From Deltaproteobacteria bacterium (GTDB taxonomy: Bacteria > Myxococcota_A > Polyangia > JAAYKL01), in contig JAUVDV010000017.1 in assembly GCA_030595125.1 (NCBI GenBank), positions 1 through 64,000 on the forward strand: a stretch of DNA of 64,000 bases, given 5' to 3'. The position numbers and the translations under genes were made by a program. Under the pieces are notes generated by a model. It had not been told where the DNA came from and did not search any database. It was given only the letters and a program-made list of their open reading frames with translations. Every line of letters begins with the position of its first letter. Positions within the stretch are counted from its first letter, which is position 1. This document shows positions 4,670 through 47,600 of the stretch, one piece after another.

Positions 4670-5836
4670 CTAGATTCGTCTGAAGCGGAGGCCCCGCTCC
4701 ATTCCCTTGACAAGTGACCCATCGCCCAATTCCAGAAGCTCGTTCGCAGTTGGGGCGAAGGTCGAAAGCGCGCCAGGATCCGAGAGGAACGCTTCCAGAG
4801 TGAGGTAGTATCCGCTGCGGCGTGCCACGATATACGCGTTGCGAACCTCGGGGTCCAGATCCAGGAAGCGCCTGCACAACCCCTCGAGGCGTTCCGAGTC
4901 ATCGGATAGATGTCCCTCGAGATCCATGAGAAGATTGCGGTCGTGATCTGAAACGAGCCTGCCGCTCGCCCCTTTCAATCCCACCACCATTTCCAGGATT
5001 TCCTGAACCATCTCGTGCTCCTCGAGCATTTCGAACTCACCTCGGGCGCGCATGCCCTCCAGAGGGGATCCTTTATCAACCCAGAGAGTGCGGAGCCTCA
5101 CGTGATGAGGATCGATTGCTTTGAGGACTGCTGCCGTGTCCCGGGCGTGCTCCGAAGTCAGAGCCTTTCCTCCGAGCCCCGGCATGACGTAGCAGCACAC
5201 CTCGAAGCCCGCATCGACTGCCCTCTTGCAACCGATTATGTGGTGCTCGGCACGACAACCCTTGTCTATCAACTTGAGAACGGCGTCGCTCCCGCTCTCC
5301 ACACCCACGTGAATACGTGTCAGCCCTGCGGCGCGAAGCATAGCCAACTGCTCGGGTGAACGGGCGGCGAGAGTCCTGGACCGCGCGTAGGTTGTCACCC
5401 GGTTTACCGTGGGAAAACGCTCCTTCAGTCGCTCCAGGATGGGAACGAGTATCCCGGGGGGACGTACCAGCGAGTCAGCGTCCTGCAAGAAGACATTTTG
5501 CCCTCCTCTGCTCATCCACAGGGCAACCCGTCGCTCCTCCTCTGTGGACACGGGATCGTTTATCAGATCAAGGACCGCGCGGGTGGTGATCTCCCCGTTT
5601 TTTCCCTTGCTCGATGCGCGCTCGCGGACCGACTGCGCCGCCTGAGCCAGGAGGTCTATCTCGGCCAGCAGATCCTCTGTTGGTCGTTTGGAGAAGCGCG
5701 TGCGTTTGTACACTGCGCAAAAGGCGCACTTGTTCCACGGGCAGTTTCGAGACACGCGCAACAGGAGGCTGGTCGCCTCGCTCGGCGGGCGAATTGGCCC
5801 TAACTCGCATCCGTCAAGATTGGTAACGATCTTCAT
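4670..5836 (-). CDS. Radical SAM protein of unknown substrate
   Basis: 388 residues. The cluster-binding motif is at about residues 33-41 (NCPWNKCAFCAVYKR), with spacing C-x4-C-x2-C as found in Elp3/NifB-like radical SAM proteins having CPxNxCxFC. Downstream are TTYARSRTL, the SAM-site strand GLTRIHVGVESGSD and VCCYVMPGLGG, all typical of the Elp3/HemN-type radical SAM barrel. There is no obvious second FeS or B12-binding domain. The C-terminal 100 residues are helical and without a recognised motif. It overlaps nothing, converges on the PilZ gene (18-bp gap), and lies divergent to the VWA lipoprotein. Substrate cannot be deduced from context. Confidence 0.85.
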   Translation of the reverse strand: MKIVTNLDGCELGPIRPPSEATSLLLRVSRNCPWNKCAFCAVYKRTRFSKRPTEDLLAEIDLLAQAAQSVRERASSKGKNGEITTRAVLDLINDPVSTEEERRVALWMSRGGQNVFLQDADSLVRPPGILVPILERLKERFPTVNRVTTYARSRTLAARSPEQLAMLRAAGLTRIHVGVESGSDAVLKLIDKGCRAEHHIIGCKRAVDAGFEVCCYVMPGLGGKALTSEHARDTAAVLKAIDPHHVRLRTLWVDKGSPLEGMRARGEFEMLEEHEMVQEILEMVVGLKGASGRLVSDHDRNLLMDLEGHLSDDSERLEGLCRRFLDLDPEVRNAYIVARRSGYYLTLEAFLSDPGALSTFAPTANELLELGDGSLVKGMERGLRFRRI

Positions 5837-5922
5837 GGGGGGAACTTAGCACAACTCGATTGGGTTACGAGCCCGCAATTATGTTAAAATGCTACTTCGT
5901 TCACAAAGAAAGGGTCAGGGCA

Positions 5923-6957
5923 ATGAAGCGCGTGTTGTTGATGATGTCGGCTATCGTGCTGTTGTTTGGTTGTCATCAAGTCGGTAGTCTGGATGGAGAT
6001 AACGGCCCGGACTCCGATGCGGACACTGATGCGGACACTGACACCGACACTGACACCGACTCCGATGCCGACTCGGATTCGGACAGCGATTCCGATGGCG
6101 ACAGTGACACCATCTGCGTTGAACAAGAACTTGATATTGAAGTCCGGCCGGTTCGCCTGGTCATCCTGCAGGATTCTTCGGGATCCATGGCCGGAACAAG
6201 CTGGCTCCAGATCACAACCGCTTTAACCAACATCCTTAACCTGTGGTCTGGCTCGGGCATCGAGTTCGGGTTCGACTATTTCCCCAATGTTGGAGATTGT
6301 GGGATCAACTCGGCCATACCGATCGCTCCGACCGCCGGCGCCGAGACAAACATCATCAACTGGATGACCACCCATAGCCCCGGCGGCATGACCCCACTCT
6401 TTGAAACCATGACAAACTATTTTAATCCCGGTTACGCTGCGGGCTTCCCGGCGTCTGATGCCGATTCGTACCTGGTAGTGATCACGGGCGGCACGCCGGA
6501 CTGCGGCAGCGCAAGCGCGGCTAGCTTCACGGTATTGACCAACAACCTGCTTGCGAACCAGATCAAGACCTTCGCGATTGGGTTCAACTACTCCAGCGAA
6601 TATCTCGATGCGGTGGCGGCATCGGGCGGCATGCCTCCTCCGTACGATGTTCCCGTCAACGCCACCAATTCGCTCAGCTTGCAGAACGCACTCGACGACA
6701 TTGTGCTGCTGGTGTTCACCTGTATCTTCAACGTGCAGGGTCCGGAGGCAATCACGGAAACCGACATCATCAATTTCTATTTAGACGGCGTGATCGTGCC
6801 CATGAACGACGGTTGTGGTGGCTACGGCGAGGGCTGGCAGTGGGTTGACGCGGAGTGCACCCAGGTGGAGTTCTGTCCGACATTGTGTGCCGATATCAAG
6901 GATGGAGATCCTCCGGACATCATGGCCATATTGAGTTGCCCCCCGCCCGGTCCGTAG
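5923..6957 (+). CDS. VWA-domain lipoprotein with Asp/Thr/Ser linker
   Basis: Start chosen at Met5923 (MKRVLLMMSAIVLLFGCHQ), which follows an AGGGTCAGGG ribosome-binding site; the track ORF starts 21 codons earlier. The signal peptide ends in an LFGC lipobox, so the mature protein is likely lipid-anchored at the cell surface or periplasmic face. A linker of alternating Asp with Ser/Ala/Thr (about 40 residues) precedes a von Willebrand A-type domain with the MIDAS motif DSSGS (RLVILQDSSGSMAG). The C-terminal ~80 residues contain six Cys and a sequence GCGGYGEGWQWVDAECTQVEFCP that resembles Cys-stabilised caps. Probably adhesive or metal-binding; ligand unknown. Forms an apparent operon with the next gene (16-bp gap). 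Confidence 0.8.
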   Translation: MKRVLLMMSAIVLLFGCHQVGSLDGDNGPDSDADTDADTDTDTDTDSDADSDSDSDSDGDSDTICVEQELDIEVRPVRLVILQDSSGSMAGTSWLQITTALTNILNLWSGSGIEFGFDYFPNVGDCGINSAIPIAPTAGAETNIINWMTTHSPGGMTPLFETMTNYFNPGYAAGFPASDADSYLVVITGGTPDCGSASAASFTVLTNNLLANQIKTFAIGFNYSSEYLDAVAASGGMPPPYDVPVNATNSLSLQNALDDIVLLVFTCIFNVQGPEAITETDIINFYLDGVIVPMNDGCGGYGEGWQWVDAECTQVEFCPTLCADIKDGDPPDIMAILSCPPPGP

Positions 6958-15107: not shown

Positions 15108-15533
15108 ATGAAAAGCTTTCTTCATAGAGCAGCACTAGTGATCACGATGGTCATCGCGGCCGCATGGATGTCCGGGTGTGTCATCCATACGTATAGCGGC
15201 GATGGAAACAAGCCGACAAAAGCGAAACACGCTAAGTCCAACAAGAAACACAAGGCCAAGCCGGCTAAAAAGAAAAAGGCCAAACCGGTCAAAGAGAAGA
15301 AGGCCGAGCCGGTCAAAGAGAAGAAGTCCGTGCACGCCGAAAAGAAACCGGCCAAGCACGCCGAAAAGAAGCCGGCCAAGCACGCCGAAAAGAAGAAAGC
15401 CAAGCACGCCGAAAAGAAGAAAGCCAATCGTTCCGACAACAAGGGGACCGAGGCGACCGAAGAGAAGAAGTCCGTGCACGCCGAAAAGAAACCGGCCGGG
15501 CTCGTGCCGATGCACAAACCAGACTCGCAGTAG
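15108..15533 (+). CDS. Lys-rich repeat lipoprotein
   Basis: 141 residues. MKSFLHRAALVITMVIAAAWMSGC is a lipoprotein signal peptide (MSGC lipobox). The mature part is almost wholly Lys/Ala/Pro/Glu/His in short tandem units such as KPVKEKKAE and HAEKKPAKHAEKK, about 40% lysine. It resembles cationic, envelope-bound low-complexity proteins that could bind peptidoglycan or other anionic polymers, but no function is assigned. The strong Shine-Dalgarno sequence (AAAAAGGAGAATCCTC before ATG) suggests high expression. Stands 150 bp after nrdJ and 60 bp before nagZ. Confidence 0.7.
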   Translation: MKSFLHRAALVITMVIAAAWMSGCVIHTYSGDGNKPTKAKHAKSNKKHKAKPAKKKKAKPVKEKKAEPVKEKKSVHAEKKPAKHAEKKPAKHAEKKKAKHAEKKKANRSDNKGTEATEEKKSVHAEKKPAGLVPMHKPDSQ

Positions 15534-18354: not shown

Positions 18355-19083
18355 CTACGGACAGCTGGCCGGTACCGGCGTGCATGCGTCGTCGAGGTTG
18401 CCCTCAACAGATATCATAGTGGGGGTGCTGGTGAGTTGGTCCAGCAAATCGCACACCTCGCAGTCGGGAAGAATGACGTTTTCGAAGATGAACAATTCCA
18501 CACCTACCGTGGTGAGGGCACTTAGCCCGTTCAGGTTCGTGAGGGAGGCGTTGTCACAAATTTCCAAGTTCTCACCCACCGATGTGATGCCGCTCAGACC
18601 GTCCAGGTTTGTGAGAACATAGTTTCCGAGGATGAAAAAGCACTCGCCCACTGAGGTGAGAGAGCCAAGTCCGTCCAAGTTGACTAGGGCGAAACTCGAG
18701 GAGATTTGCAAGTCTCTGCCCACCGAGGTGAGGGCGCCCAAGTCGTCCAGGTCAGTGAGAGCGTCGTTGTTGTGGATAATGAAGTGTCCGCCCACCGAGG
18801 TGAGGCAAATCAAGTCGCTCAAGTCGGTGCATGATGGGCACTCGATAATGAGTTGTCCCGAGATTGATGTGTATCCCGCGAGGGTTGCGACATCCGATTG
18901 TGTGTTGATCTTGAAACCGCCGCTGTACTCTCCCAGGGGGCAATCAGTATCGGTAACAGTATCGGTGTCGGTATCAGTATCGGTGTCGGTATCGGAGTCC
19001 CCGCCGGTGTCGTCGCTGTCGTCGTCACCACACCCACCACAAACCAGCACGGTCGCAAGCGTCATCAAAAGCAAGTATCGCAT
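18355..19083 (-). CDS. L-domain/LRR-like repeat lipoprotein (copy 1, about 4 repeats)
   Basis: ATG chosen at 19083 (MRYLLLMTLATVLVCGGC; GTG 19086 directly precedes it). Signal peptide with a CGGC lipobox, then an Asp/Thr linker, an N-terminal cap (GEYSGGFKINTQSDVATLAGYT... CPSCTDL), about four 24-residue repeats of the pattern LTNLDGLSALTSVGGxLxIxxNxA, and a C-terminal cap LPDCEVCDLLDQLT...NLDDACTPVP with four Cys. The repeats resemble bacterial receptor-L-domain/LRR beta-solenoids. Probably exported and lipid-anchored; ligand unknown. First of three paralogues in tandem on this strand; its leader is almost identical to that of the copy at 20257. Confidence 0.75.
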   Translation of the reverse strand: MRYLLLMTLATVLVCGGCGDDDSDDTGGDSDTDTDTDTDTDTVTDTDCPLGEYSGGFKINTQSDVATLAGYTSISGQLIIECPSCTDLSDLICLTSVGGHFIIHNNDALTDLDDLGALTSVGRDLQISSSFALVNLDGLGSLTSVGECFFILGNYVLTNLDGLSGITSVGENLEICDNASLTNLNGLSALTTVGVELFIFENVILPDCEVCDLLDQLTSTPTMISVEGNLDDACTPVPASCP

Positions 19084-19165
19084 CACCCCATCTTTCGTTC
19101 TGTACGTGAGAGTATTCTATCAGTGATAGCGAAAAAGATGTTTCGGAAAACGAATCGACGGCGCC
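18986..19165. repeat. 180-bp near-identical duplication, copy A
   Basis: Differs at only about two positions from 21314-21493. It covers the promoter/leader region, start codon, signal peptide, lipobox and start of the Asp/Thr linker of the L-repeat gene. Indicates a recent duplication or gene conversion. Confidence 0.9.
19117..19129. promoter_or_regulatory. 13-bp palindrome CTATCAGTGATAG (tetO-core-like), copy A
   Basis: Perfect 6-1-6 inverted repeat, 34 bp upstream of the ATG of the L-repeat gene ending at 18355. The 13 bases equal the core of the tet operator, suggesting a TetR-family site; no regulator gene is nearby. A hairpin in the leader mRNA is the alternative. Confidence 0.4.
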
Positions 19166-19212
19166 CTTACGACCCCAAATCCCTGTCCGGCCGCTGCCCT
19201 CATTCTTGGACT

Positions 19213-20193
19213 CTACGGACAATTACCCGGAACCGGTGTGCAAGTATCATCGAGGTTGTCGTAGACATCCATCGAGGTAGGTCCGCTGGTTAGCTGGTCC
19301 AGAAGATCGCACACCACGCAATCGGGAAGAAAGTCGTTGTCGGAGATCCAAAACTCATCACCCACCGAGGTGAGGACGCTCAGCCCGTCCAGGTTGGTGA
19401 GGGCGGCGTTTCCGAGGATTGACAAGTACCCTCCCACCGAGGTGAGGGCGCTCAGTCCGTCCAGGTTGGTGAGGGCGTCATTGTAGCCGATCCCCAAATC
19501 ATTCACTGAGGTGAGGGCGCTCAGCCCGTCCATGTCGGTGAGGGCTACGTTGTCTATTATCAGCAAGCACTCGCCCACCGAGGTAAGGGCGCTCAGCCCG
19601 TCCAGGTTGGCGAGGGTGTCGTTGCCCCTGATCGTCAAGTTCAAGCCCACCGAGAGGGGGTTGCTCAAGCCGGTTAAGCTGGTTAGGGCGTCGTTGTAGC
19701 CGATAAACAAGTCGCCCACTGAGGTGAGGGCGCCCAGGCCGTCCAGGTTGGTGAGGGCGTCGTTCCTGTAGATTTGCAATTCCCCACCAACCGAGGTGAG
19801 AGCGCTCAGACCGTCAAGGTCGGTGAGGGCGTCGTTCCAGCGGATATGCAAATACCAGCCTACTGAGGTAAGACAGTTCAACGCGCCCAAGTCGGTGCAC
19901 GAAGGGCATTCGATTGTCAGGTCTCCTGAAACCGAGGTGTATCCGGCAAGGGCTGCAACATCCGATTGGTATTCGATCATGAAATCGCCGATGTACTCCC
20001 CTTGAGTGCACTCGACCGGGCCGGTATCGGTGTCAGTATCGGTATCCGTGGCGGTGTCGGTATCTGTATCCGAGTCGGTATCGATGTCGGTGTCCGAATC
20101 GGCATCAGCGGTCCCTCCATCTCCGATGGATGAGCCACGCGAGCACCCGGCCACCAGCACGGTCGCCAGTGCCATCAACAGCAAGTACCTCAA
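19213..20193 (-). CDS. L-domain/LRR-like repeat lipoprotein (copy 2, about 7 repeats)
   Basis: The track ORF starts at a GTG (20253). Alignment of the leader with the two paralogues places the homologous start at TTG 20193 (RYLLLMALATVLVAGC, lipobox VAGC), behind GAAAGG; ATG 20226 is another candidate. Linker DSDTDIDTDSDTDTDT, N-terminal cap GEYIGDFMIEYQSDVAALAG with CPSCTDL, about seven 24-residue repeats (for example LTNLDGLSALTSVGGYLSIL), one of them with the variant LTGLSNPLSVG, and the four-Cys C-terminal cap LPDCVVCDLLDQLT...CTPVPGNCP. Same likely fold and location as its neighbours. The palindrome in its leader is degenerate (CTACCAGTGATCT). Confidence 0.75.
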   Translation of the reverse strand: MRYLLLMALATVLVAGCSRGSSIGDGGTADADSDTDIDTDSDTDTDTATDTDTDTDTGPVECTQGEYIGDFMIEYQSDVAALAGYTSVSGDLTIECPSCTDLGALNCLTSVGWYLHIRWNDALTDLDGLSALTSVGGELQIYRNDALTNLDGLGALTSVGDLFIGYNDALTSLTGLSNPLSVGLNLTIRGNDTLANLDGLSALTSVGECLLIIDNVALTDMDGLSALTSVNDLGIGYNDALTNLDGLSALTSVGGYLSILGNAALTNLDGLSVLTSVGDEFWISDNDFLPDCVVCDLLDQLTSGPTSMDVYDNLDDTCTPVPGNCP

Positions 20194-20256
20194 TGCCCAA
20201 GCCTTTCGTTTTGCACGTGAGAGCATTCTACCAGTGATCTCGGAAAGGCGCACGCA

Positions 20257-21411
20257 CTACGGGCAGTCGTAAGGAACCGGGGTGCAGCCGTCGTCGAGGT
20301 TGGCGGATACATAAATGGTCCCAGGCGTGGGGGTGAGCTGGTCCAGCAGATCGCACACCTCGCAGTCGGGTAGGTCGGGGTTGGATAGGATGCCAAAGTC
20401 CCCGCCCACCGAGGTGAGGGCGCTCAGCCCGTCCAGGTTGGTGAGGATGTTGTTGCCGTCGATCCACAAGTCCTCACCCACCGAGGTAATACCGCTCAAC
20501 CCGTCCAGGCTGGTGAGGGTGTAGTTGCAGGTGATGTCCAAGGCCCAACCCACCGAAGTCAGGGCGCTCAGGCCGTTCAGGTTGGTGAGGGCGTCGTTGA
20601 ATTCGATGGTCAAGTCCTCACCCGCCGAAGTGATGTTGCTCAGGCCGTACAGGCTGGTGAGGGAGTCGTTGCTGCCGATGTACAACCACCCAACCACCGA
20701 AGTCAGGGCGCTCAGGCCGTCCAGGCTGGTGAGGGCGTAGTTGTAGGCGATCCCCAAGCCCCCGCCCACCGAAGTGATGTTGCTCAGGTCGTTCAGGTTG
20801 GTGAGGACGGCGTTGGAGGTGATCCACAAGTCCCCGCCCACCGAAGTGATGTTGCTCAGGCCGTTCAGGTTGGTGAGGGCGTCGTTGCTGCGGATTTTCA
20901 AGTACCCACCTAGCGGAGTCAGGGCGCTCAGCCCGTCCAGGTTGGTGAGGGCGTCGTTGTCGTAGATGCTCAGGTTCCCACCCAGCGAAGTCAGGGCGCT
21001 CAGGCCGTCCAGGCTGGTGAGGGCGTGGTTGTCCCAGATGGTCAAGGACCCATCCACCGAAGTCAGGGCGCTCAGGCCGTCCAGGCCTTTCAGGTTGAGG
21101 TGGTAGATGTCCAAGTCCCCGCCCACCGAAGTGAGGCAGCTCAGTCCGTCCAAGTCGGTGCACGAAGGGCATATGATACGAAGATTTCCCAAAATCGACG
21201 TGTATCCCGCGAGGGTTGCCACGTCCGATTGCGTTTCGATAGTAAACTCGCCGGTGTACTCTCCCAGGTTGCACTCGACCGGGCCGGTATCAGTATCGGT
21301 GTCGGTATCGGTATCGGTATCGGAGTCCCCGCCGGTATCGTCGCTGTCGTCGTCACCACACCCACCACAAACCAGCACGGTCGCAAGCGTCATCAAAAGC
21401 AAGTATCGCAT
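20257..21411 (-). CDS. L-domain/LRR-like repeat lipoprotein (copy 3, about 10 repeats)
   Basis: Largest paralogue (384 residues from ATG 21411; GTG 21414 directly precedes it). The signal peptide and lipobox (VLVCGGC) are identical to those of the copy at 18355. Asp/Thr linker, N-terminal cap with CPSCTDLDGLSCL, then ten 24-residue repeats with DNA periodicity of 72 bp, and the C-terminal cap LPDCEVCDLLDQLTPTPGTI with CTPVPYDCP. The stop is separated from the start region of copy 2 by only a short leader, so the three genes form a tandem array, each with its own leader. Repeat copy number differs among paralogues (4, 7, 10), as expected from slippage or unequal recombination. Confidence 0.78.
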   Translation of the reverse strand: MRYLLLMTLATVLVCGGCGDDDSDDTGGDSDTDTDTDTDTDTGPVECNLGEYTGEFTIETQSDVATLAGYTSILGNLRIICPSCTDLDGLSCLTSVGGDLDIYHLNLKGLDGLSALTSVDGSLTIWDNHALTSLDGLSALTSLGGNLSIYDNDALTNLDGLSALTPLGGYLKIRSNDALTNLNGLSNITSVGGDLWITSNAVLTNLNDLSNITSVGGGLGIAYNYALTSLDGLSALTSVVGWLYIGSNDSLTSLYGLSNITSAGEDLTIEFNDALTNLNGLSALTSVGWALDITCNYTLTSLDGLSGITSVGEDLWIDGNNILTNLDGLSALTSVGGDFGILSNPDLPDCEVCDLLDQLTPTPGTIYVSANLDDGCTPVPYDCP

Positions 21412-21493
21412 CACCCCATCTTTCGTTTTGTACGTGAGAGTATTCTATCAGTGATAGCGAAAAAGATGTTTCGGAAAACGAATCGACGGCGCC
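21314..21493. repeat. 180-bp near-identical duplication, copy B
   Basis: Partner of 18986-19165. It ends one base before the stop codon of the beta-helix gene upstream, so the duplicated unit begins right at a gene boundary. Confidence 0.9.
21445..21457. promoter_or_regulatory. 13-bp palindrome CTATCAGTGATAG (tetO-core-like), copy B
   Basis: Same perfect palindrome as at 19117-19129, 34 bp upstream of the ATG of the ten-repeat lipoprotein. It has been preserved in both near-identical leaders, but because the duplication looks recent this is not independent evidence for selection. Confidence 0.4.
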
Positions 21494-21494
21494 T

Positions 21495-23342
21495 TTACGG
21501 CTGGCAGTCGTACGCGCCCATGTCCACGTCGACGCCCGGCAGCCCGACGCCGACGATATCATCCCACGGGATGCCATCAGCGTCATACGCGGCCGACAGC
21601 GTATCGTCCGAGACGTCGATACATGGAGAGGAAATCTCAATGTGGTAGTCGCCGATCACCCACTGGTCGTCAGTGGGATCGAAAATCGTTCCAAGATCGT
21701 CCCAGTGTCCCGGGCTCACGAAAACCGGATCCAGATCGATAATGAACGACCCCGGGTAGCCGCCCATCACGTCGCAGTAGCTCACCGTGGTGCTGCTGCC
21801 CGGCTCGTCCACGATCTCCGTGGCGCCGTTGTCCCACGCAATGCAATTGACCACCTCGGTCTCGGAGAGTTCCGCGTTGAAGATGGCGCCACCGGAATCG
21901 TCTGCCAGATTGCCGTTGATGACCGTGTTGACGATATTCGGATCTCCGCGCGTGCCGTTGTAAAACCCGCCGCCTCGCGTTGCCCGGTTTCCGTTGACGC
22001 GGGTGTTCACTATCCTCGGAAAATCCATCTCGATGGCAAACCCTCCGCCGTTGCCCTGCGCCGTGTTGCCCGCCACCAGGCAGGACGCGAAGGTTCCCTC
22101 GGACCACTCCAGGTGAACGCCGCCTCCGTTGCCGTCCGCAGTGTTGTACAAGATCTGCATCTGCTCAAAGACAGTTTCGTTGTCGTTACTCGCCACGCCC
22201 CCACCGTCGCCACCGGCCTGGTTATTAATGACAATGGACTGCTCGGCGAAGGTCTGCCCGCGAAAGCCGGCCAGGCCGCCACCGTCCATGTAGGCCGTGT
22301 TATTGGAGATGAGCGTTGTGTCCATGGCTGCAGAGCAGTTTCTGTTGTAGATGCCGCCGCCGTTCTGCCAGGCCACGTTGTCCTCGATGGTCAGGTTCCT
22401 CAACGTCGGATTGCAGGATCCGAACTGGGAGTCCAGGTAGATGCCGCCGCCGTTCTGCGTCGCAATGTTGTTCGTGATGACCAGGGCATCCAGCAGGGCG
22501 AGCCCGTTGAGGACGAACAGCGCACCGCCGTTCTGCGCGTGGTTGTCCGTGAAACTGCAATCCTGAATCGTGGGGGTGCTGTCCCACGCGAACACGCCGC
22601 CCCCGTCCACGGCGCGATTGTGCTGGAAAACACAATTTCGAAGATCGGTGGACGCGGCGTTCAGGTATGCGCCGCCACCTCGATGATGCGGGGATGGTCC
22701 CAGAGCCTCTCCTCCGGTGACGGTGAACCCGTCAAGGCCCGCGTTCTGCGCTCCGGATACCACATGATAGACTGCCGCCGAACCACCATCCTGTCGCCCG
22801 TCGAGAATGGTTTCGTTGCCGACGATATCGCGCTCTTCCTTCAGATGTTCCATCCCGGCGAAACCGCCGAATACGTGAACGTTCCCGCGCAGCTTGATGG
22901 TATCCGAAACGTCCGACACATAGGGTCGATAGGTTCCCCTGGCAACCCACACCTCGCAGTAGTTGAGCAACTGAGCCGCCGCGTAGGCGGAGTCGATGCC
23001 GTCCTGCACGTTGTCGAACGCCCCCAGCCAGGTTTCGCCGCATAAAATGGTGTTGGAGTTGAGGTTTACGTATCGAATGCAGCGACCATCGTCGTCGACG
23101 AAATTGTCCACGCACGAATCCGACTCGGTGTCGGAATCACTGTCGTCTCCCGGCGTTTCAGTGTCGGACTCCGTATCTGCACCTGCATCGAATTCATAAA
23201 AAGGGTAGAGCTTATCCCTGTCGCCGCATGCCACCGAGGCGTAAAGGGCGGTGATTAAAACCACATACCGTCCAATTTGAGGTACCTTGACAGGCAATAT
23301 TAGATCTTTCGGCTTCAATCTTGTGGGGATAAAATATCCCAA
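21495..23342 (-). CDS. Right-handed beta-helix lipoprotein
   Basis: 615 residues in the track, starting at a TTG; the true start may be a TTG nearer the hydrophobic segment (VVLITALYASVAC, lipobox SVAC), for example at 23297. An acidic DTESDTETPGDDSDSDTESD linker follows. The body is a polymorphic-outer-membrane/pectate-lyase-like parallel beta-helix: repeated NNxAxxxGGGVxx turns such as HNRAVDGGGVF, NNIATQNGGGIYL, NTADGNGGGVHL and NTAQGNGGGFAI, each about 22-25 residues. The early part IDSAYAAAQLLNYCEVWVARGTY resembles DUF1565/chlamydial-Pmp-type repeats. No catalytic residues are recognised. Likely a surface structural or adhesive protein; part of the surface island with the three L-repeat lipoproteins. 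Confidence 0.8.
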   Translation of the reverse strand: MGYFIPTRLKPKDLILPVKVPQIGRYVVLITALYASVACGDRDKLYPFYEFDAGADTESDTETPGDDSDSDTESDSCVDNFVDDDGRCIRYVNLNSNTILCGETWLGAFDNVQDGIDSAYAAAQLLNYCEVWVARGTYRPYVSDVSDTIKLRGNVHVFGGFAGMEHLKEERDIVGNETILDGRQDGGSAAVYHVVSGAQNAGLDGFTVTGGEALGPSPHHRGGGAYLNAASTDLRNCVFQHNRAVDGGGVFAWDSTPTIQDCSFTDNHAQNGGALFVLNGLALLDALVITNNIATQNGGGIYLDSQFGSCNPTLRNLTIEDNVAWQNGGGIYNRNCSAAMDTTLISNNTAYMDGGGLAGFRGQTFAEQSIVINNQAGGDGGGVASNDNETVFEQMQILYNTADGNGGGVHLEWSEGTFASCLVAGNTAQGNGGGFAIEMDFPRIVNTRVNGNRATRGGGFYNGTRGDPNIVNTVINGNLADDSGGAIFNAELSETEVVNCIAWDNGATEIVDEPGSSTTVSYCDVMGGYPGSFIIDLDPVFVSPGHWDDLGTIFDPTDDQWVIGDYHIEISSPCIDVSDDTLSAAYDADGIPWDDIVGVGLPGVDVDMGAYDCQP

Positions 23343-46868: not shown

Positions 46869-47600
46869 TTAGGGACAGTTCGTCGGAACGGGCGTGCATG
46901 TGTCATCGAGATTATCTTGAACACCAATCTGAGAGGGGGTGGCAGTAAGCTGGTCCAGCAGGTCGCACACCTCGCAGTCGGGAAGAACGTCGTTCCCATT
47001 GATGAACAACCGCTCCACCGAGGTGAGGGCGCTCAGGCCGTTAAGGTTGGTGACGGCGGTGGCGTTATAGATTGACAAGTCCTCTCCCACCGAGGTGAGG
47101 GTGTTCAACCCGTCAAGGCTCGTCAGGACGTCGTTTGAGATGATCGACAAGCTCCCGCCCACCGATGTGAGGGCGCCAAGCCCGTCAAGGTTGGTGAGGA
47201 AGTCGTTCATGAAACCGATACGCAAGTCCCCGCCCACCGATGTGAGTGCTCCCAGACCGTTCAGGTTGGTGAGGGCCAGGTTCCCGGCGATTGTCAAGGT
47301 CCCGCCCACCGATTCAAGGCAAATCAACTCGCTCAAGTCCGTGCAAAACGGGGAGCCGATATTGAGGTCTCCCGAGATCGATGTGTATCCCGCAAGGGCT
47401 GAAAAATCCAATTGTGTAGGGATCATGAAATCGCCGCTGTATTCTCCCAGATTGCACTCTGCCGGGCCGGTATCCGAATCGGAGTCCGTGTCCGCATCCG
47501 TGTCGGTCCCACCGTCTCCGATGGACGAAACGTTCGAGCAGTCGGCAGCTGTCACGGCCAGCATCAGACCCAGTAGAAGATTCTTGATATGGCTCATCAT
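46869..47600 (-). CDS. L-domain/LRR-like repeat lipoprotein (copy 4, about 5 repeats)
   Basis: 243 residues, ATG 47600 six bases after GGAGG. Signal peptide MMSHIKNLLLGLMLAVTAADC (lipobox AADC), Asp/Thr linker, N-terminal cap GEYSGDFMIPTQLDFSALAG with CTDLSELICL, about five 24-residue repeats (LTNLNGLGALTSVGGDLRIG and similar), and the four-Cys cap LPDCEVCDLLDQLTATP ... CTPVPTNCP. Clearly a paralogue of the array at 18.3-21.4 kb but 25 kb away and more diverged, with a different signal peptide and no tetO-like palindrome in its leader. Confidence 0.75.
   Translation of the reverse strand: MMSHIKNLLLGLMLAVTAADCSNVSSIGDGGTDTDADTDSDSDTGPAECNLGEYSGDFMIPTQLDFSALAGYTSISGDLNIGSPFCTDLSELICLESVGGTLTIAGNLALTNLNGLGALTSVGGDLRIGFMNDFLTNLDGLGALTSVGGSLSIISNDVLTSLDGLNTLTSVGEDLSIYNATAVTNLNGLSALTSVERLFINGNDVLPDCEVCDLLDQLTATPSQIGVQDNLDDTCTPVPTNCP

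What the first reader, a model, noticed from the sequence alone, without database searches (positions are those of the whole stretch)
18355..21411. Array of L-repeat lipoproteins with variable repeat number and conserved Cys-bearing end caps
Three tandem genes and a fourth at 46869-47600 encode lipoproteins made of 24-residue units (LTNLDGLSALTSVGGxLxIxxNxA) in about 4, 7, 10 and 5 copies. All share an N-terminal cap (GEY...F.I..QSD...LAGYTS...CTDL) and a C-terminal cap with four Cys (LPDCxVCDLLDQLT...LDDxCTPVPxxCP). Repeats resemble receptor-L-domain/LRR solenoids. The caps plus expandable 72-bp units suggest a surface-receptor family diversified by repeat expansion. I do not know a described family with this cap.
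Basis: partly seen in the sequence, partly recalled or inferred. Interest (0 to 1): 0.7.

Follow-up and report, generated by a model that had tools for sequence, protein, structure and literature searches.

The report
Ninety-gene repertoire of diversifying surface lipoproteins
The three neighbouring genes belong to a family of about ninety surface-anchored, repeat-built binding proteins in this one bacterium, whose likely binding face has changed under strong selection, much as immune-receptor repertoires do in fungi and animals.

Summary
The four window genes are lipoproteins with a leucine-rich solenoid of 24-residue units. They belong to a family with 94 C-cap-bearing reading frames in this 5.4 Mb genome. 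Two other species of the genus have 32 and 48 C-cap matches; other genera of the family have 0-3, and other sampled families of the class none. Unit number runs from 0 to 23 per gene and differs between species at the same chromosomal place. AlphaFold2 (pLDDT 93.8) gives an LRR-like solenoid. Unit columns 16, 18, 20, 21 and 23, on and just after the beta strand, are hypervariable. In the ten-unit window gene these columns changed about nine times faster per nonsynonymous site than synonymous sites did (p about 2e-17). Other exposed columns look neutral and buried ones conserved. Synonymous change there is not raised, and only group II-intron-like reverse transcriptases were found, so targeted mutagenesis is unlikely. 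The caps are derived versions of caps on related Recep_L-like lipoproteins, not a new domain. Best reading: a genus-specific repertoire of surface binding proteins, diversified by gene and unit duplication plus positive selection. Ligands are unknown. New variant of a known kind.

The parts
18355..19086 (-). family gene 1: lipoprotein, 5 units counting the cap unit
   Evidence: Recep_L E 4e-4, just below the Pfam cut-off
18472..18831 (-). gene 1 repeat solenoid (72-bp units)
   Evidence: unit parse
18358..18480 (-). gene 1 C-terminal four-Cys cap
   Evidence: cap profile
19213..20253 (-). family gene 2: lipoprotein, 8 units
   Evidence: Recep_L E 3e-7
19330..19899 (-). gene 2 repeat solenoid
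19216..19338 (-). gene 2 C-terminal cap
20257..21414 (-). family gene 3: lipoprotein, 11 units; the array with the clearest positive selection
   Evidence: Recep_L E 1e-13
21286..21414 (-). gene 3 lipoprotein signal peptide (lipobox ...CGGC) and Asp/Thr linker
   Evidence: sequence; family-wide lipobox
21163..21273 (-). gene 3 N-terminal cap (GEY..F.I..QSD...LAGYTS)
   Evidence: N-cap profile; helix and strands in the model
20374..21162 (-). gene 3 solenoid: 11 units; hypervariable columns 16, 18, 20, 21, 23
20260..20382 (-). gene 3 C-terminal cap (helix plus strand, four Cys)
46869..47600 (-). family gene 4: lipoprotein, 5 units; the syntenic gene in congener G002 has 14
46983..47345 (-). gene 4 repeat solenoid
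46872..46994 (-). gene 4 C-terminal cap

Best explanation
The genes encode members of a genus-specific repertoire of cell-surface lipoproteins. A lipidated cysteine and a flexible Asp/Thr/Ser linker hold an LRR-like (Receptor-L-type) solenoid away from the membrane. Disulfide-capable caps close both ends. Each 24-residue unit adds one beta strand, and its outward residues (columns 16, 18, 20 and the following 21 and 23) form one continuous face that binds a ligand. Gene duplication, gain or loss of whole 72-bp units, and positive selection for new residues on that face give many binding specificities; some members keep a fixed face. Shown here: architecture, family size, unit-number change, predicted fold, and selection confined to the face. 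Inferred: surface exposure, that the face binds ligands, and that the ligands lie on other cells, particles or phages (recognition or adhesion).
For: Family size 94, against 32 and 48 C-cap matches in congeners, 0-3 in other genera of the family, and none in the 25 sampled genomes of other families in the class. Units per gene 0-23, median 8. Amino-acid entropy 3.3-4.0 bits at columns 16, 18, 20, 21, 23 and 0.3-2.5 bits at columns 1-15, 17, 19 and 22; column-specific synonymous codons show shared recent DNA ancestry. Window gene 3, tree built on framework bases: omega 9.1 at the five columns (67.5 of 111 N sites against 21 of 168 S sites, p 1.7e-17), 0.88 at other exposed columns, 0.36 at buried ones; pooled four youngest arrays omega 5.6, p 1.7e-22. 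AF2 pLDDT 93.8, strand at columns 17-20. Ser, Tyr and Trp make up 29% of columns 18 and 20; 729 different five-residue sets in 771 units. A single whole unit is present in one species and absent in another between otherwise matching units (C43/C141). Syntenic loci differ, e.g. 5 vs 14, 9 vs 4, 6 vs 3 units.
Against: No ligand, expression or localisation data. At stable orthologous loci the face is conserved between species (C8: pN 0.07-0.13 against framework pS 0.25-0.28), so not every member is diversifying. Most arrays are too old for a clean omega because the variable columns are saturated. The Nei-Gojobori counts on unit trees do not model recombination between units. The D/T linker and signal are shared with unrelated lipoproteins, so they do not by themselves argue for a receptor role.
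Confidence: 0.72

Rival explanations
1. Relaxed constraint: the five columns are simply exposed and free to vary, with no adaptive diversification.
For: They are solvent-facing strand or loop positions. Over all unit pairs, pN and pS at these columns are about equal.
Against: In young arrays N change at these columns is 5.6-9 times the synonymous rate, while other exposed columns give 0.6-0.9. N against S within the five columns alone is also significant (p 1e-4).
Confidence: 0.08
2. Targeted mutagenesis, such as a diversity-generating retroelement or local hypermutation, writes the variable codons.
For: Changes are concentrated in a few codons interleaved with conserved ones, as in diversity-generating retroelements.
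Against: In window gene 3 synonymous change is about equal in variable and framework columns (0.19-0.23 against 0.12-0.19). Adenine-bearing framework codons (AAC at columns 3 and 22, GAC at 5) stay largely fixed. The two reverse transcriptases found look like group II intron types and lie on contigs without family genes. Over all arrays variable-column pS does exceed framework pS, but those columns are near saturation.
Confidence: 0.05
3. Antigenic variation or decoy: members are shields whose faces change to escape phages, predators or grazers, with no ligand of their own.
For: Surface lipoproteins, many paralogues and rapid turnover are also typical of antigenic-variation families.
Against: Change is confined to one face rather than to all exposed surface. 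No silent cassettes: only one near-identical unit is shared between different genes of a genome. No switching element was seen.
Confidence: 0.15
4. Self or kin recognition by homotypic binding, working like myxobacterial TraA but spread over many loci.
Against: TraA is one polymorphic locus with a different architecture; some members here are conserved between species; no TraA/TraB link was tested.
Confidence: 0.15

Closest known systems
Receptor L-domain (Pfam PF01030) and related LRR_EndoS (PF23952) repeat proteins of bacteria
   Same: Repeat type, predicted fold, lipoprotein or secreted context; Recep_L above the Pfam cut-off in three of the four window proteins; homologous caps in other-genus relatives.
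   Different: About 90 paralogues in one genome with a conserved four-Cys C-cap variant and selection on one face; other genera of the family have only 3-24 matches to the full-length query.
Fungal HNWD/NLR high-internal-conservation repeats (Podospora, PMC4986451)
   Same: Highly similar repeats, repeat-number variation between alleles or species, positive selection on a few positions per repeat that map to the binding surface.
   Different: Those are WD, ANK or TPR repeats in intracellular NLRs with effector domains and repeat exchange between genes; here bacterial surface lipoproteins with LRR-like units, no effector domain and little exchange between genes.
Lamprey variable lymphocyte receptors (e.g. 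PMC3900441)
   Same: Capped LRR solenoids with variable unit number and a variable face.
   Different: Those are assembled somatically by a cytidine-deaminase-mediated, gene-conversion-like process; here variation is germline, between paralogues and species. No homology claimed.
Leptospira surface LRR proteins and Listeria internalin A
   Same: Bacterial surface LRR proteins; InlA is the best Foldseek match and Leptospira LIC10831 (4u06) and LIC11098 (4u08) are also hit. Leptospira LRR proteins are reported to bind host glycosaminoglycans and integrins (PMC11629876).
   Different: Different repeat consensus and caps; structural similarity is modest (TM about 0.45).

Membership tests
Receptor L-domain / LRR-like solenoid proteins | Match to the Pfam PF01030 model above its cut-off | tested here: met
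   30.9, 51.7 and 25.3 bits against a cut-off of 21.8 for three proteins; 20.9 for the fourth, just below
Receptor L-domain / LRR-like solenoid proteins | Parallel-beta solenoid with one strand per unit on one face | tested here: met
   AF2 pLDDT 93.8, pTM 0.90, one strand at columns 17-20 in every unit; Foldseek hits LRR proteins and insulin-receptor L domains
Bacterial lipoproteins | Signal peptide with a lipobox Cys | tested here: met
   A script placed a lipobox in 81 of 85 complete G000 members, a few doubtfully; the other four show one by eye; acylation not tested
High-internal-conservation repeats under diversifying selection (fungal HNWD/NLR type) | Positive selection on a few positions per repeat on the binding surface | tested here: met
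   omega 9.1 at five columns in window gene 3, p 1.7e-17
High-internal-conservation repeats under diversifying selection (fungal HNWD/NLR type) | NLR architecture (NOD plus effector domain) and repeat exchange between family members | tested here: not met
   No NOD or effector domain in the four window proteins; only one near-identical unit shared between genes of one genome. It evolves like that family but is not a member.
Variable lymphocyte receptors | Somatic assembly from cassettes by cytidine-deaminase-driven conversion | not testable with these tools
   No cassette stock seen; analogy only
Diversity-generating retroelement targets | Associated DGR reverse transcriptase and adenine-directed changes | tested here: not met
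   Only group II-intron-like RTs on other contigs; adenine-bearing framework codons conserved

The most novel reading that the evidence does not exclude
A bacterial, germline-encoded recognition repertoire: about ninety lipid-anchored LRR solenoids per genome whose ligand face evolves under strong diversifying selection through unit duplication and residue replacement. It would be a surface counterpart, in bacteria, of the NLR and variable-lymphocyte-receptor repertoires, used to tell apart prey, neighbours or phages.
Probability: 0.35. Interest if true: 0.85.

Novelty: new variant of a known kind. Interest (0 to 1): 0.66.

Why it matters
Large repertoires of diversifying repeat receptors are known from plants, fungi and jawless vertebrates. 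I found no paper describing one on a bacterial surface, with selection mapped to one face of an LRR solenoid, though the library searched is open-access only. If the faces bind distinct ligands, this genus has an evolved set of natural LRR binders and a tractable system for asking what drives recognition diversity in environmental bacteria.

Tried and rejected
Split-half selection of closely related units over all pairs failed: units do not sort by age across genes and the variable columns are saturated, so omega there is uninformative; within-gene young arrays were used instead. Sequence search of solved structures gave no credible hit; Foldseek was needed. A diversity-generating retroelement was considered and rejected. 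Inter-gene cassette exchange was looked for: only one near-identical unit is shared between genes of a genome. A common promoter or recombination motif was looked for in upstream and downstream 10-mers: the commonest (AAAGGCGGGG, at most 13 of 81) is weak, and many others are just the C-cap codons of the gene upstream. Near-identical genes in two congeners (C447/C77, C120/C204) lie in longer stretches at 94-97% identity, so they may be transfers or binning cross-talk and were not used as evidence.

Full report
Observation. Three head-to-tail minus-strand genes at 18355-21414 and a fourth at 46869-47600 encode lipoproteins with a (D/T)n linker, an N-cap, 24-residue leucine-rich units and a four-Cys C-cap. 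Counting the Cys-starting cap unit they have 5, 8, 11 and 5 units. Pfam Recep_L (PF01030) is above its cut-off in three of them and just below in the fourth. No Pfam or NCBIfam model covers the caps.

Family size. The C-cap alone gives 92 matches at E <= 1e-3 in the host genome (5.39 Mb, 203 contigs), 48 and 32 in two congeners, 0-3 in other genera of the family, and none in the 25 sampled genomes of other families in the class. Fetching the loci gave 94 C-cap-bearing reading frames in this genome and 868 units; genes carry 0-23 units, median 8. Nearly all complete members have a lipobox followed by an Asp-rich linker. Many members sit in their own genomic context, with neighbours conserved in the congeners, so the family is not an assembly artefact; a few fragments and contig-end truncations exist. 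One congener (G002) has a contig of the same length as JAUXHN010000074, from a Deltaproteobacteria MAG, CSMAG_2956, and is probably that genome. Placement of the class near Polyangia is my inference from genome sizes.

Variation in number. At loci with conserved flanking genes, unit number differs between species: window gene 4 has 5 units against 14 in G002; others are 9 against 4 and 6 against 3; elsewhere two genes stand where a congener has one. In C43/C141 a single whole unit is present in one species and missing in the other, between otherwise matching units. Other loci are stable (15/15/15, 2/2/2, 7/7).

Variation in sequence. Columns 16, 18, 20, 21 and 23 of the unit carry 3.3-4.0 bits of amino-acid entropy; columns 1-15, 17, 19 and 22 carry 0.3-2.5 bits and column 24 carries 2.9. 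Framework columns keep column-specific synonymous codons (TTG at 17, TCG at 12, GTG at 13), so units share recent DNA ancestry. In window gene 3 all within-gene unit pairs give framework pS 0.187, variable-column pS 0.232 and variable-column pN 0.611. On a tree built from framework bases only, the variable columns show 67.5 changes on 111 nonsynonymous sites against 21 on 168 synonymous sites (omega 9.1, p 1.7e-17). Other exposed columns give 0.88 and buried ones 0.36. The four youngest arrays pooled give 5.6 (p 1.7e-22), and N against S within the five columns alone is significant (p 1e-4). Building the tree on framework bases biases framework pS down slightly; the last comparison is free of that. 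Between species, stable orthologous members have conserved faces, so diversification is not universal. Most arrays are too old to test because the variable columns are saturated.

Structure. AlphaFold2 on the mature ten-repeat protein with four relatives gives pLDDT 93.8 and pTM 0.90: an LRR-like solenoid with one strand per unit at columns 17-20. Columns 17 and 19 are hydrophobic and conserved (buried); 16, 18 and 20 alternate with them and face out. Foldseek finds internalin A, SDS22, Leptospira LRR proteins and insulin-receptor L domains at modest TM. Columns 18 and 20 are rich in Ser, Tyr and Trp (29% together) and 771 units carry 729 different five-residue sets.

Caps. The C-cap profile matches a lipoprotein of another genus of the family at E 2e-10 and, weakly, other class members and a Bacteroidetes protein. 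The caps are a derived form of a wider cap, not a new domain.

How diversity arises. Synonymous change in window gene 3 is about equal in variable and framework columns, adenine-bearing framework codons are largely fixed, and the only reverse transcriptases found look like group II intron types on other contigs, so targeted mutagenesis is unlikely. Near-identical units are almost never shared between genes of one genome, so the evidence favours unit duplication or loss plus selected point changes over cassette shuffling. The signal peptide and linker are also fused to unrelated mature domains in at least 28 other lipoproteins in the fetched loci, and in G002 the place next to the PMP-like gene carries a different repeat lipoprotein with the same kind of signal and linker.

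Comparison. The closest evolutionary parallel in the papers read is the fungal NLR repeat families, with highly similar repeats, repeat-number polymorphism and positive selection on a few positions per repeat (PMC4986451). Surface LRR proteins that bind host molecules are known in Leptospira (PMC11629876), and single-locus polymorphic surface receptors in myxobacteria (PMC6372800). I found no paper describing such a family in bacteria, but the library is open-access only.

Verdict. A genus-specific repertoire of surface binding lipoproteins under diversifying selection: a new variant of a known kind. Function beyond 'binding face under selection' is inference.

Noticed in passing
window 21495-23342 (-): Lipoprotein with Chlamydia-PMP-type repeats next to the array. 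The congener orthologues (G002:C263:1256-3100, G001:C192:1235-3079) each show one in-frame TGA in the aligned stretch, possibly only an over-long start in the window ORF.
   Followed up: no
L192 3-1316 (-): In congener G002 the place next to the PMP-like gene holds a different repeat lipoprotein (DVDGDGDMDVLG..WWENT repeats, FG-GAP/VCBS-like by eye) with the same kind of signal peptide and D/S/T linker, so the anchor may be a module combined with different mature domains.
   Followed up: partly
G000 loci, e.g. C199:2489-3589, C163:14534-16312, C115:18081-20123; window 5827-6954 (+): At least 28 lipoproteins outside the family carry the same Asp-rich linker, some with a near-identical signal peptide.
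   Followed up: partly
G103 (loci L196-L199): A class member with a 1.6 Mb genome, 98% complete, has 20 matches to the ten-repeat protein: an apparently separate enrichment of such repeats in a small genome.
   Followed up: no
L170 4045-7925 and L146 1-3878: Two congeners share 3.9 kb at 97% identity including an identical family gene, above their usual divergence; recent transfer or cross-binning.
   Followed up: partly
window 15108-15533 (+): Small lysine/histidine/alanine-rich lipoprotein with a 24-bp DNA repeat (KHAEKK type).
   Followed up: no
G000 contigs C12, C27, C41, C51, C95, C185, C199: Contig ends often fall near or inside family genes, so the true number of members and units may be higher than counted.
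   Followed up: partly
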